A stretch of 64,000 nt of DNA from NCBI GenBank assembly GCA_009787405.1, contig WRGA01000125.1, forward strand, positions 35,109-99,108. Direction: 5' to 3'. Source of the DNA: Candidatus Azobacteroides sp. (GTDB taxonomy: Bacteria > Bacteroidota > Bacteroidia > Bacteroidales > WRGA01). Below the pieces are notes generated by a model that was not told the origin of the DNA, did not search any database, and saw only the letters and a list, made by a program, of their open reading frames with translations. Of the stretch, positions 52,375-57,071 are shown piece after piece (the first letter of the stretch is position 1; each line of letters begins with the position of its first letter). A program made the position numbers and the translations under genes.

Positions 52375-53424
52375 TCAATTCTTTATTTTATCGGGTATCG
52401 TTATTTCACCGACCAAAGAACAGTCCATGTATTGGCGCACCTGTATCGGAGTCATATTGCGGCCCAGCAAAAACATCAATTTGGTTACGGCAGCCTCCGT
52501 CGTGCTGTCGTATCCGCTGACTACACCGGCTTCCGATAACCGCTGTCCTGTTTCATAACGTTGCATTTCCACACTGCCGGACGCACATTGAGACACATTG
52601 ACGATCACAATGCCCCGATTGACGGCGTTTTTCAACAGCTTCAAAAACCAGGTTTTGGTGGGAGCATTTCCCGATCCGAATGTTTCCATGACCACCGCTT
52701 TTAAATCGGGAATGTCGAGTATGGCTTTCACCGTTTCCCGGGTAATTCCGGGAAACAGTTTCAGCACCACGACATGACGATCCGGCAGAAAATGTGGGTT
52801 GAGCGGTTTTCTTTCCGGCGGACGAATCAATGCCGAATTGTACTGAATATGAATGCCGGCACGGGCCAATACCGGATAATTGAACGACCGAAAAGCATTG
52901 AAATAATCAGCATTTATTTTCGTCGTCCTGTTGGCTCGCATCAAATGATTTTCGAAAAAGATGCACACTTCCGGAACAACCGGCAATCCGTTTTCTTTGG
53001 CTGCGGCAATTTCAAGGGCGGTCATCAGATTTTCCTTTCCGTCTGTCCGGAGCATTCCGATAGGCAGCTGAGAACCCGTAAAAATAACCGGTTTCGATAA
53101 ATTTTCAAGCATAAAACTCAATGCCGACGCGGTATAAGCCATGGTATCCGTTCCGTGCAAGACGACAAAACCGTCGTATTTGTAATAATTATCAGAAATG
53201 ATGCTGACCAATTCGCACCAGTCTTCGGGTGTAATTTCGGAAGAATCGCACGGCGGCGAAAACTGTACGGTCGAAATTTTATAATTGAACCGCTTCAATT
53301 CAGGTACATTTTTTTCCAATTGATTAAAATTGAATGTCTCGAGAACTCCCGTTTCCGGATTCTCGACCATTCCGATGGTTCCTCCCGTATAAATCAACAA
53401 TATGGATGTTTCGCTTATGTTCAT
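52375..53424 (-). CDS. Type I L-asparaginase
   Basis: 'ILLIYTGGTIGMVENPETG', 'FVVLHGTDTMAYTASALSFML'. Confidence 0.93.
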   Translation of the reverse strand: MNISETSILLIYTGGTIGMVENPETGVLETFNFNQLEKNVPELKRFNYKISTVQFSPPCDSSEITPEDWCELVSIISDNYYKYDGFVVLHGTDTMAYTASALSFMLENLSKPVIFTGSQLPIGMLRTDGKENLMTALEIAAAKENGLPVVPEVCIFFENHLMRANRTTKINADYFNAFRSFNYPVLARAGIHIQYNSALIRPPERKPLNPHFLPDRHVVVLKLFPGITRETVKAILDIPDLKAVVMETFGSGNAPTKTWFLKLLKNAVNRGIVIVNVSQCASGSVEMQRYETGQRLSEAGVVSGYDSTTEAAVTKLMFLLGRNMTPIQVRQYMDCSLVGEITIPDKIKN

Positions 53425-54557
53425 ACGCGATTCCTGATTGAATTAAAAATGACTTGTGCCGCTTTACGCGCCGCACCGGGAGGGCCGAGTTTCCGGATCA
53501 CTTCCTCGTAACCATCGAGCATTTTTTTCCGGAACGGTTCATTTTCGATGATATTTGAAAGTTCCCGGCGAAGATTTTCGGTGGTGAGCAGATGTGCCGG
53601 AAGCTCCTTGACCACTTCCCGACCCGCAATCAAATTCACCAAAGAAATAAATTCGACATGCAAAATTGCTCTGAGCAGTAAATAAGTCAATTTTCCGCCG
53701 CCTGTATAATAACAAACAACTTGGGGAACTTTCAACAACGCTGTTTCCAGCGTGGCCGTTCCGGATGTCACCAAAGCTGCATCCGCCTGTTGAATCAGCC
53801 GGTACGTTTGCCCGAAAACAACGGGAGTATCCCGAATATCTTTCACTGTTTGATAAAATTCGGGAGCAATGCCCGGCGCTCCCGCAATGACCGGCCGATA
53901 CCCGGCAAAACTTCCGGCCGATTCCAACATGACGGGAAGATTCTTGGAAATTTCATGTTTCCGGCTGCCGGGCAACAACGCAATAATCGGTTTATCCGCC
54001 AACCGGTTTTCGGCAATATAATGCCCGAATGTTTCATTTTTATACTCCCTTTCCGCAATCTCGTCAACCGTCGGATTTCCCACATAATCAACCACATAAT
54101 CACGCTTTTTGTAAAAATCCGTTTCAAACGGGAGAATACACAACATGTTATCCACATATTTCTTAATGCTTTTAATGCGGTATTCTTTCCACGCCCATAT
54201 TTTGGGAGAAATATAATAATGTACCGGTAAATGCAAAACGGTCTTTACATACTTCGCCATTTTTAAATTGAAGCCGGGATAATCGATCAGAATAACCACG
54301 TCGGGCATATACTTTTTAATGTCCTCTTTGCACCGGCTCATGTTCTTGAAAATCGTCCGAAGATTCATCAAAACAGGAATAAAACCCATGAACGCCGTAT
54401 CTTTGTAATGGTTCACCAAGGTACCGCCTTGCGCCGCCATCAAATCACCTCCGAAAAAACGGAAATCGACATTCCGGTCGATCTCTTTCAATGCCGCCAT
54501 CAAGCGTGATGCATGCAAATCTCCGGATGCTTCGCCGGCTATCAAATAATAACGCAT
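53421..54557 (-). CDS. lpxB: Lipid-A-disaccharide synthase
   Basis: 'YYLIAGEASGDLHASRLM', 'RFFGGDLMAAQGG', 'ALLPGSRKHEI'; 4-nt overlap with the asparaginase gene. Confidence 0.94.
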   Translation of the reverse strand: MRYYLIAGEASGDLHASRLMAALKEIDRNVDFRFFGGDLMAAQGGTLVNHYKDTAFMGFIPVLMNLRTIFKNMSRCKEDIKKYMPDVVILIDYPGFNLKMAKYVKTVLHLPVHYYISPKIWAWKEYRIKSIKKYVDNMLCILPFETDFYKKRDYVVDYVGNPTVDEIAEREYKNETFGHYIAENRLADKPIIALLPGSRKHEISKNLPVMLESAGSFAGYRPVIAGAPGIAPEFYQTVKDIRDTPVVFGQTYRLIQQADAALVTSGTATLETALLKVPQVVCYYTGGGKLTYLLLRAILHVEFISLVNLIAGREVVKELPAHLLTTENLRRELSNIIENEPFRKKMLDGYEEVIRKLGPPGAARKAAQVIFNSIRNRV

Positions 54558-54727
54558 GTTAATTTACGATTGGACAAATTACAAATTAAAATTTTCTGCA
54601 CCGATTATCCGGAACCGGGAGTATTTATTGCATAATGTATTTCCGGGATTCGCACAAAACAAAAACACAAAGGTACGAAGAAGTTCTTTATCCCTTTGTG
54701 TTTTCCCGGATGAACGCTACAAGATTA

Positions 54728-54860
54728 TAAGTAACCGGCAGAATTTAATTTAAATTATTTCAACCGCAAAAATGCAAAGACAAAAAGTCGCAAAGAATTT
54801 AAACTTTGCGTCTTTACGACTTGATGTTTAAAATATAAATTATTTTTTGCGACATACTTA
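54728..54860 (+). repeat. Dispersed palindromic intergenic element, copy D
   Basis: TAAGTAACCGGCAGAATTTAATTTAAATTATTTCAACCGCAAAAATGCAAAGACAAAAAGTCGCAAAGAATTTAAACTTTGCGTCTTTACGACTTGATGTTTAAAATATAAATTATTTTTTGCGACATACTTA. Confidence 0.85.
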
Positions 54861-54871
54861 TCCAAAAAACG

Positions 54872-54905
54872 ACATATGTGTCTATGATAGCGGTTTTTCG
54901 CCCCG
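54872..54905 (+). repeat. Left imperfect direct repeat flanking the GNAT module
   Basis: ACATATGTGTCTATGATAGCGGTTTTTCGCCCCG vs right copy GCATATGCATCTATGACAGTGGTTTTCACTCCCT. Confidence 0.55.
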
Positions 54906-54920
54906 AAAAGCTCTTCGGCA

Positions 54921-54952
54921 TATTGAGTTGCCCGGAATTTTTCGTATCTTTA
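54921..54952 (+). promoter_or_regulatory. Promoter of the small ORF / GNAT operon
   Basis: TATTG-N19-TATCTTTA, ~30 nt upstream of ATG at 54983. Confidence 0.55.
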
Positions 54953-54982
54953 CGAAGTTAAAATTAAAAAACGAAGGACATT

Positions 54983-55144
54983 ATGGCATTAGAAATAAAA
55001 TCGCCTCCTGTGTTAAAGGGGCAAGCAGCCCGTGACTTTTATAAAAGGTGGGCGCAAGCAACTGAAAGCAAAAGCAAAGAAGAAGCGCAGGAAAGCATGC
55101 GTCGATGGCGGGCTTTTTTTGCTAAACAAAAACAATCTTTATAA
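54983..55144 (+). CDS. 53-aa putative antitoxin (absent from the supplied ORF track because <60 aa)
   Basis: MALEIKSPPVLKGQAARDFYKRWAQATESKSKEEAQESMRRWRAFFAKQKQSL; stop TAA overlaps the ATG of the GNAT gene (TAATG). Confidence 0.7.
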   Translation: MALEIKSPPVLKGQAARDFYKRWAQATESKSKEEAQESMRRWRAFFAKQKQSL

Positions 55145-55734
55145 TGATTGATTTGGAAAGAGATTGCGAAATGATTGTTCTTTCGGAAGAACAGAGCATT
55201 TCGAATTTCGATTGTGGCAACGATGATTTGAATGATTTTTTCAACCACGATGCTCTCCAATACAGGCGTCAAATGCTGTCTCAAACATGCTTTTTCCGTC
55301 ATAAAAGTGGAGGGGCTGTTGTCTGTGCATTTTCCTATTCGGCAAGCAGCATCAAAACCGCCGATTTGCCCGGCAGTCGGCGCAAAAAGGTAAAAGAATA
55401 TGTTCCAAAAGAAAAATCGTTGAAATCTTATCCCGCCATTCTTATTGGTCGTTTAGGAGTTGCAACAAAATTTAGCGGACAAGGTGTAGGTTCGCAGTTA
55501 ATAGAAGCTATCAAGAACTTTTGTCTTATCAATTTTCCCGATTTTGTCCGTTTTCTTTTAGTGGACGCATATAATGAGCCTATCGTACTCGGATTTTATC
55601 AAAAAAATGACTTTGCAGTAGTTTTTTCGACTGAAAAACAAGAAAAAGAAGCCTATCGGCAGTCGCCTTCCGAATCCTTGCAAACGAGATATATGTTTTA
55701 CGATATGATGCAGTGGCGAAATAAGATGACTTAG
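55144..55734 (+). CDS. GNAT family N-acetyltransferase, TacT/AtaT toxin-like
   Basis: 'ISNFDCGNDDLNDFFNHDALQYRRQMLSQTCFF' and 'ILIGRLGVATKFSGQGVGSQLIEAIKNF' match the GNAT-toxin layout. Confidence 0.8.
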   Translation: MIDLERDCEMIVLSEEQSISNFDCGNDDLNDFFNHDALQYRRQMLSQTCFFRHKSGGAVVCAFSYSASSIKTADLPGSRRKKVKEYVPKEKSLKSYPAILIGRLGVATKFSGQGVGSQLIEAIKNFCLINFPDFVRFLLVDAYNEPIVLGFYQKNDFAVVFSTEKQEKEAYRQSPSESLQTRYMFYDMMQWRNKMT

Positions 55735-55760
55735 CCGGTTATTCCTATCCTACGAATGAA

Positions 55761-55800
55761 AGCGTGTAACCCAATCAAAAAGTGGTTACACGCTTTTTTT
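55761..55800 (+). terminator. Intrinsic terminator of the GNAT operon
   Basis: AGCGTGTAACC-CAATCAAAAAGT-GGTTACACGCTTTTTTT. Confidence 0.8.
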
Positions 55801-55826
55801 GTGCTTAAAAAGTTTATGCCATAACC

Positions 55827-55873
55827 GCATATGCAGGTTTTTTCTTATCCGACATTCAAATACCTGCATATGC
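55827..55873. repeat. Inverted repeat GCATATGCAGGT ... ACCTGCATATGC
   Basis: 12-bp perfect arms, 23-nt spacer; right arm overlaps the right direct repeat. Confidence 0.7.
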
Positions 55874-55900
55874 ATCTATGACAGTGGTTTTCACTCCCTA
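55867..55900 (+). repeat. Right imperfect direct repeat flanking the GNAT module
   Basis: GCATATGCATCTATGACAGTGGTTTTCACTCCCT; compare 54872-54905. Confidence 0.55.
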
Positions 55901-56024
55901 ATTTTATAACATCGATTAATAATTACGAATTAAAATGGCAAATTAAATATTAAAAAAATGGAACGAGCAAATTTCAAAAATACCGTAGGGGCATACCCTT
56001 ATGTCACCCTGTAATGTACAATTT

Positions 56025-57071
56025 TTATGCACAATAATTTTGAAAAACTTTGGTGATTCCCGCTTCCAATGAAATTTTAGGGGTCCAGCCTAATGAATAT
56101 AGTTTGGAACTGTCCATCAATTTTCTCGGCGTTCCATCGGGTTTTGTCGAATCCCAAACGATCTCGCCTTCGAATCCCACAATCTTTTTTACCAGATAAG
56201 CCAACTCTTTGATCGACAAGTCTTCGCCACAACCGATATTGACATGGGGGATGTTCGAATCCGGCGCATCGTATGTCTGCATCAAATATACGCAAGCATC
56301 CGCCATATCTTCCACATTCAAAAATTCGCGCAACGGGGAACCGGTTCCCCACAAGGTGACGGTATTATTCGAAATACCGTATTTTGCCAAAATATTCCCT
56401 ATTTCGACATCCGTATTTTTTCCGGAAACACCTTCCACCGGTCTTTTATCCAAATCTTCGCGAATGGCGTTCCAATCGCTTTTCCGTAAACATTCGGCCA
56501 AATACATCTTACGAATCAATGCCGGAAGCACATGACTTTTTTCCAAATCATAATTATCGTTCTTTCCGTATAAATTCGTAGGCATCACCGATATAAAATT
56601 GCATCCGTATTGGGCATGATAGGCTTCGCACATCTTTATTCCCGCAATTTTGGCAATGGCATACGGTTCGTTGGTCGGTTCCAATTCTCCCGTCAACAAA
56701 TATTCCTCCTTGATGGGTTGCGGAGCCAATCGGGGATAAATACAAGACGAACCCAAAAACAACAATTTTTTCACACGGTTTTGATACGCCGCATGAATAA
56801 CATTATTCTGGATCATCAGATTTTCATAAATAAATTGAGCACGATACGTATTATTCGCCACAATACCGCCGACTTTCGCCGCAGCCAAAACCACATATTC
56901 GGGTTTTTCGTCCGCAAAAAATCGGGTTACACTTTCCTGATCGATCAAGTTCAGTTCCGGATAATTACGGGTCAACAAATTCGTATAGCCTTGACTTTGC
57001 AAGTTACGACAAATGGCAGAACCAACCATTCCGATATGCCCTGCCACATATATTTTTGCATTTTTTTTCAT
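56025..57071 (-). CDS. fcl: GDP-L-fucose synthase
   Basis: 'IYVAGHIGMVGSAICRNLQSQGY', 'LFLGSSCIYPRLAPQPIKEEYLLTGELEPTNEPYAIAKIAG'. Confidence 0.94.
   Translation of the reverse strand: MKKNAKIYVAGHIGMVGSAICRNLQSQGYTNLLTRNYPELNLIDQESVTRFFADEKPEYVVLAAAKVGGIVANNTYRAQFIYENLMIQNNVIHAAYQNRVKKLLFLGSSCIYPRLAPQPIKEEYLLTGELEPTNEPYAIAKIAGIKMCEAYHAQYGCNFISVMPTNLYGKNDNYDLEKSHVLPALIRKMYLAECLRKSDWNAIREDLDKRPVEGVSGKNTDVEIGNILAKYGISNNTVTLWGTGSPLREFLNVEDMADACVYLMQTYDAPDSNIPHVNIGCGEDLSIKELAYLVKKIVGFEGEIVWDSTKPDGTPRKLMDSSKLYSLGWTPKISLEAGITKVFQNYCA

What the first reader, a model, noticed from the sequence alone, without database searches (positions are those of the whole stretch)
54862..55900. GNAT-toxin-like module with an unannotated 53-aa partner, bracketed by imperfect direct repeats
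Seen: a promoter-like TATTG-N19-TATCTTTA precedes a 53-aa ORF (MALEIKSPPVLKGQAARDFYKRWAQ...KQKQSL) that overlaps the next ATG as TAATG. The next gene encodes a protein with the TacT/AtaT-style GNAT layout, followed by a strong terminator. Both sides carry the imperfect repeat CATATG[TC][GA]TCTATGA[TC]AG[CT]GGTTTT. Known GNAT toxins (TacT, AtaT, KacT) usually pair with RHH/DUF1778 antitoxins. This partner is too short for an RHH domain plus a neutralising tail and is basic and helical. Inference: a self-contained, possibly mobile TA-like cassette with a non-RHH antitoxin.
Basis: partly seen in the sequence, partly recalled or inferred. Interest (0 to 1): 0.6.

Follow-up and report, generated by a model that had tools for sequence, protein, structure and literature searches.

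The report
GNAT toxin-like gene with RHH-less partner
A pair of adjacent bacterial genes looks like a poison-and-antidote system in which a tRNA-acetylating-toxin-like enzyme is paired not with the usual DNA-binding antidote but with a conserved, roughly 50-residue protein that no family database names.

Summary
The 53-aa ORF is real and belongs to an unnamed family (MAxPIKxTPVLxGxxAxxF, about 50-60 aa). It lies directly upstream of a distinct clade of AtaT/TacT-like GNATs. I found 54 loci with readable pairs in Bacteroidota genomes and viral contigs, plus two named plasmids; one genome carries five pairs. Partner and GNAT clade co-occur almost perfectly. No intact GNAT of this clade lacks the partner, seven damaged GNATs keep an intact one, and the sister GNATs carry DUF1778 (TacA) RHH antitoxins instead. 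A tree needs a single partner switch (support 100). The catalytic Tyr is kept in 53 of 54.
Best reading: a type II-like GNAT toxin-antitoxin module whose antitoxin has no DNA-binding domain. It may be a free-standing version of TacA's toxin-binding tail; profile comparison favours this only weakly. A 2022 study noted such unexplained 'divergent short ORFs' before GNATs; here they form one family.
The module is an insertion: a same-genus genome has lpxB and fcl adjacent, without module or repeat. The flanking repeats are real but are not a simple target duplication. The right copy belongs to an 85-94-bp block that recurs only beside another module copy in this genome. Toxicity and neutralisation remain untested.

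The parts
54921..54952 (+). Bacteroidota-type promoter: TATTG, 19 nt, TATCTTTA
   Evidence: read; the matching TAnnTTTG element is found upstream of the partner in 43 of 54 related loci against 4.5 expected
54983..55144 (+). 53-aa partner, predicted antitoxin; family motif MAxPIKxTPVLxGxxAxxF
   Evidence: ORF; conserved upstream of this GNAT clade; purifying selection where dS is not saturated, dN/dS 0.12-0.41; no Pfam/NCBIfam/PADLOC/PDB match
55144..55734 (+). 196-aa GNAT acetyltransferase, predicted AtaT/TacT-like toxin; ATG overlaps the partner stop (TAATG); catalytic-Tyr equivalent Y152 at 55597-55599
   Evidence: phmmer hits to AtaT/TacT3/KacT at E 3e-8 to 3e-5; Tyr in 53/54 and 32/32 aligned relatives; the model of a homologue matches GNAT toxins first
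55759..55800 (+). intrinsic terminator
   Evidence: 13-bp perfect inverted repeat plus T run; -23.6 kcal/mol, z -6.65
54873..54897 (+). left flanking repeat, 25 nt
55867..55891 (+). right flanking repeat, 25 nt
55851..55932 (+). longer repeat block holding the right repeat; recurs (81%) only just upstream of the second module copy in this genome, C107:7146-7230

Best explanation
This is a two-gene toxin-antitoxin module of the GNAT kind. The downstream gene encodes an AtaT/TacT-like acetyltransferase that, unrestrained, would acetylate the alpha-amino group of charged tRNAs and stop translation (inferred from family). The upstream 53-aa protein, made first from the same promoter and translationally coupled (TAATG), binds and blocks the enzyme. 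Unlike TacA/AtaR antitoxins it has no ribbon-helix-helix domain, so it should neutralise without repressing its own operon. It is predicted as an extended N-terminal stretch plus two helices, and may be the equivalent of TacA's C-terminal toxin-wrapping tail standing alone. Shown here: operon anatomy, conservation, obligate pairing, clade structure, fold family, insertion. Inferred: toxicity, tRNA target, neutralisation, lack of autorepression, relation to the TacA tail.
For: GNAT hits AtaT/TacT3/KacT-type PDB entries (names). The model of the homologous pair (pLDDT 91.8) has GNAT toxins as its first 38 PDB matches. Catalytic Tyr conserved. In 396 Bacteroidota genomes the partner profile finds 10 loci, all beside the 10 GNATs of this clade, plus one spurious weak hit inside a 1165-aa ORF. 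In all fetched loci, GNATs of this clade have the partner and lower-scoring GNATs have a DUF1778 RHH upstream. One partner switch on the tree, support 100. Partner-GNAT spacing -35 to +16 nt. Asymmetric decay: seven damaged GNATs keep an intact partner, no intact GNAT lacks one. Partner and GNAT distances correlate, Mantel r 0.59, permutation maximum 0.15. Partner varies faster than GNAT where both could be measured. Patchy, multi-copy, on phages and plasmids. Insertion relative to a same-genus genome.
Against: No member has been tested for toxicity or neutralisation. Some GNATs of the clade lack the full QxxGxG acetyl-CoA loop (e.g. L004, L015), so some may be inactive. The TacA-tail link is statistically weak (P about 0.006; 1/150 shuffles; 0.02-0.7 across subsets). 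The gain in AlphaFold confidence of the partner with the GNAT over the partner alone is modest, its first ten residues are less confident, and no coordinates or inter-chain error were available.
Confidence: 0.72

Rival explanations
1. The GNAT is a non-toxic modifying enzyme and the short protein is its activator, adaptor or chaperone, in a mobile accessory operon.
For: Bikmetov et al. 2022 (PMC9177977) note that GNATs outside the DUF1778 clade may have evolved other functions; the partner has no DNA-binding domain and toxicity is untested.
Against: Intact partners persist beside broken GNATs, but no intact GNAT lacks the partner, which fits an antidote better than an activator. Partner-first order, fast partner evolution and phage/plasmid carriage are TA-like.
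Confidence: 0.17
2. The short protein is the substrate: the GNAT acetylates it (a lysine, or the amino group of the almost invariant Ala2) to make a signal or a modified peptide.
For: Ala2 in 52 of 54 partners; GNATs often acetylate alpha-amino groups.
Against: No invariant lysine; no export, protease or leader-processing gene recurs beside the modules that were listed; closest relatives by sequence and fold are tRNA-acetylating toxins.
Confidence: 0.06
3. The short ORF is a regulatory leader peptide or spurious ORF.
For: It is short and has no family match.
Against: Protein-level conservation across 54 loci with invariant Pro and Phe, and dN/dS 0.12-0.41 in unsaturated pairs.
Confidence: 0.02

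Closest known systems
GNAT-DUF1778 type II TA systems (AtaRT, TacAT, KacAT, ItaRT)
   Same: homologous GNAT with conserved catalytic Tyr; antitoxin gene first; tight operon; multiple copies; presence on mobile elements
   Different: partner is 49-69 aa with no RHH/TacA1 (PF08681) match; GNATs form a separate clade with a diagnostic YPAV segment and a longer C-terminus (TRLMYFDL)
GNAT-DUF4065 TA (VcaAT; Bikmetov et al. 2022, PMC9177977)
   Same: GNAT toxin with a substituted antitoxin
   Different: antitoxin there is a DUF4065 protein and the GNAT lies inside the 'true TA clade'
TA-like GNAT loci with 'divergent short ORFs' outside the true TA clade (PMC9177977)
   Same: GNAT related to the toxins, preceded by a short ORF without a DNA-binding domain; probably the same loci or their relatives
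   Different: that work called the ORFs divergent and left them unassigned; here they align as one family with fixed motif and pairing
phrog_16712 and phrog_13585 (unknown function)
   Same: match 17 and 11 of 33 partners
   Different: no function or pairing recorded there

Membership tests
GNAT-DUF1778 (AtaRT/TacAT) type II TA | toxin is a GNAT related to AtaT/TacT | tested here: met
GNAT-DUF1778 (AtaRT/TacAT) type II TA | partner is a DUF1778/TacA1 RHH DNA-binding antitoxin | tested here: not met
   0 of 33 partners match PF08681 or any RHH family, while 15 of 15 tested sister-clade partners do
GNAT-DUF1778 (AtaRT/TacAT) type II TA | partner holds a TacA-like C-terminal toxin-neutralising segment | tested here: inconclusive
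   hhalign puts partner 7-49 on DUF1778 54-94, P 0.006 but probability 6%; shuffle controls 1/150 to 44/60 by subset; PDB holds a 46-residue AtaR tail bound to AtaT
type II toxin-antitoxin system | two adjacent co-directional small genes, antitoxin first, overlapping or nearly so | tested here: met
   gap -35 to +16 nt in 54 loci; promoter element mapped upstream of the partner
type II toxin-antitoxin system | toxin gene depends on its partner gene | tested here: met
   no intact GNAT of the clade without partner; seven damaged GNATs with intact partner
type II toxin-antitoxin system | toxin stops growth; partner neutralises it by direct binding | not testable with these tools
   needs expression and binding assays
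type II toxin-antitoxin system | antitoxin or complex represses its own operon through a DNA-binding domain | tested here: inconclusive
   no DNA-binding domain found by Pfam, NCBIfam or PDB profile search; DNA binding itself untested
GNAT-DUF4065 TA | partner is DUF4065 | tested here: not met
   no DUF4065 match in 33 partners

The most novel reading that the evidence does not exclude
A widespread class of GNAT toxin-antitoxin systems works with a free-standing, roughly 50-residue neutralising peptide instead of a DNA-binding antitoxin. It would be the toxin-wrapping tail of TacA/AtaR without its RHH head, so neutralisation is uncoupled from autorepression and conditional cooperativity.
Probability: 0.4. 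Interest if true: 0.7.

Novelty: new variant of a known kind. Interest (0 to 1): 0.6.

Why it matters
A 2022 survey left GNATs outside the DUF1778 clade with 'yet unidentified antitoxins'. This work gives a concrete candidate family with a motif, obligate pairing, a single switch on the tree and a structural guess, so the question becomes one co-expression experiment. If neutralisation works without a DNA-binding head, the module separates toxin control from operon control, which most type II systems fuse. The family is recurrent in Bacteroidota, including gut species and their phages and plasmids, yet its short gene is annotated only as a hypothetical protein and is easily missed.

Tried and rejected
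Repeats as a target-site duplication: rejected, the same-genus empty site has no copy. Repeats as att sites: not supported, because the right copy lies in a contiguous block that sits outside the window's module but between rsmI and the module at C107. Partner as RHH, Xre or DUF4065: no match. Basic charge as a family trait: rejected. B. fragilis cfiA-element GNAT-XAT (PMC9138018, PMC9472255) as the same system: not established; those authors pair GNAT with a second acetyltransferase. Foldseek of the partner alone: no useful hit.

Full report
What is there. Between lpxB (53421-54557, minus strand) and the GDP-fucose synthase gene fcl (56025-57071, minus strand) lies a small plus-strand operon. 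A promoter-like TATTG-N19-TATCTTTA (54921-54952) is followed by a 53-codon ORF (54983-55144), whose stop overlaps the ATG of a 196-codon ORF (55144-55734). A strong hairpin terminator with a T run closes it (55759-55800; -23.6 kcal/mol, z -6.65). A 25-nt imperfect repeat (21/25) stands on each side at 54873 and 55867. These are the only two copies in the 2.79-Mb genome within three mismatches.

The large protein. By sequence it matches solved GNAT toxins first: AtaT at 3e-8, TacT3 at 1e-7, KacT near 2e-5 (entry names). The tyrosine that acts as general acid in GNAT toxins (Y139 in AtaT2, PMC7470980) is Y152 here; it is kept in 53 of 54 relatives with a short partner and in 32 of 32 with an RHH partner. 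An AlphaFold model of a homologous pair (L061; mean pLDDT 91.8) has only GNAT toxins (AtaT, KacT, TacT, GmvT and similar) among its first 38 PDB matches.

The small protein. On its own it matches nothing, but relatives showed at once that it is conserved. Fifty-four partners share M54 A52 I/V P54 L52 G51 A52 F54 in the pattern MAxPIKxTPVLxGxxAxxF, with a variable, mostly helical second half and 49-69 residues in all. Where synonymous sites are not saturated dN/dS is 0.12-0.41, higher than for the paired GNAT in the pairs where both could be measured. Thirty-three members scanned against Pfam, NCBIfam and PADLOC, and their profile against the PDB, gave no family; PHROGs has two unnamed groups.

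Pairing. In 396 Bacteroidota genomes the partner profile found ten loci in four genomes, each beside one of the ten GNATs that score above 90 bits with the GNAT profile, plus one weak false hit inside a 1165-aa ORF. All other AtaT-like GNATs score below 70 bits. A sample of 393 genomes of the window's order, viral contigs and the earlier loci gave the same split: GNATs of this clade have the short partner within -35 to +16 nt, and GNATs at 77 bits or less have an RHH protein, apart from one contig-end fragment and one broken GNAT. Fifteen of those RHH proteins were checked in Pfam and all are TacA1/PF08681; the rest were judged by eye. On a tree of 86 GNATs the partner type changes once, on a branch with SH-aLRT 100. 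Distances of partners and GNATs correlate (r 0.59; best of 2000 permutations 0.15). Damage is one-sided: seven loci have a broken GNAT with an intact partner ORF (L102, L108, L075, L077, L098, L117, L085), three have both damaged or the partner not found (L016, L118, L082), and no intact GNAT lacks the partner. L085 lies near a contig end and is the least certain.

Distribution and mobility. The window genome has three copies (C125, C107 and C103, the last with a truncated GNAT) and G407 has five. Named carriers are Bacteroides phage BS-TP1, with the pair between terminase and integrase genes, a Segatella copri DSM 18205 plasmid (WP_006848196/WP_006848195) and a record labelled Parabacteroides distasonis plasmid, near a site-specific integrase (WP_004295314/WP_004295313). 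In a same-genus genome (G001) fcl and lpxB are neighbours with a 92-bp spacer that holds a hairpin like the one at 54662-54704 but neither module nor repeat. The window module is thus an insertion relative to that genome, or a loss there. The right repeat belongs to a block at 55851-55932 that is 81% identical to C107:7146-7230, immediately upstream of the second module, with no other strong copy in this genome or its two congeners. By my estimate, random placement that close to a module has a chance of order 3e-4. The association is real, but its mechanism is open.

Mechanism. The anatomy fits a type II-like module: antitoxin first, overlap, one promoter, one terminator. I propose that the short protein binds the GNAT directly. 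Modelled in one chain with the GNAT (stop read as Gly), its residues 11-49 reach pLDDT 82-92 against 69-87 alone, while residues 1-10 drop. This is weak support, since neither coordinates nor inter-domain errors were available. Profile comparison lays partner residues 7-49 on DUF1778 positions 54-94, the tail that holds the toxin: the PDB has a 46-residue AtaR tail bound to AtaT. The score beats 149 of 150 column shuffles with the full set, but subsets range from 1/60 to 44/60 although nearly all choose the same diagonal. I treat 'TacA tail without its RHH head' as a lead, not a result.

Prior knowledge. DUF1778 is the standard partner, and a DUF4065 group is known. [quoted passage not shown] Searches of the open-access library found no later description; subscription journals and preprints were not searchable. 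Verdict: a new variant of a known kind, with strong genomic evidence and no wet-lab evidence yet.

Noticed in passing
window 54724-54861: Roughly 135-bp palindromic intergenic repeat with about 40 further copies (74-90% identity) across the genome, MITE- or REP-like; not part of the module.
   Followed up: partly
L012 / L102 (G000:C103:6391-6911): Third module copy in the same genome: intact partner ORF but GNAT lacking its first half.
   Followed up: yes
L016 (phage scaffold MT836071): Partner and GNAT start are joined in one frame by a deletion, with the GNAT broken further on; a natural partner-toxin fusion remnant or assembly error.
   Followed up: no
L219 (Vibrio phage Ch457 ORF14e-ORF14d): GNAT of this kind in a Vibrio phage with a short upstream ORF (MAIKSSAFGRTELSGKDAARFIVHMN...) that loosely resembles the partner motif, hinting that the family reaches beyond Bacteroidota.
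   Followed up: no
partner position 2 in 54 loci: Ala2 is almost invariant (52/54), mostly GCA but with all four Ala codons seen; after Met removal the free Ala amino group could mimic the aminoacyl-tRNA substrate.
   Followed up: no
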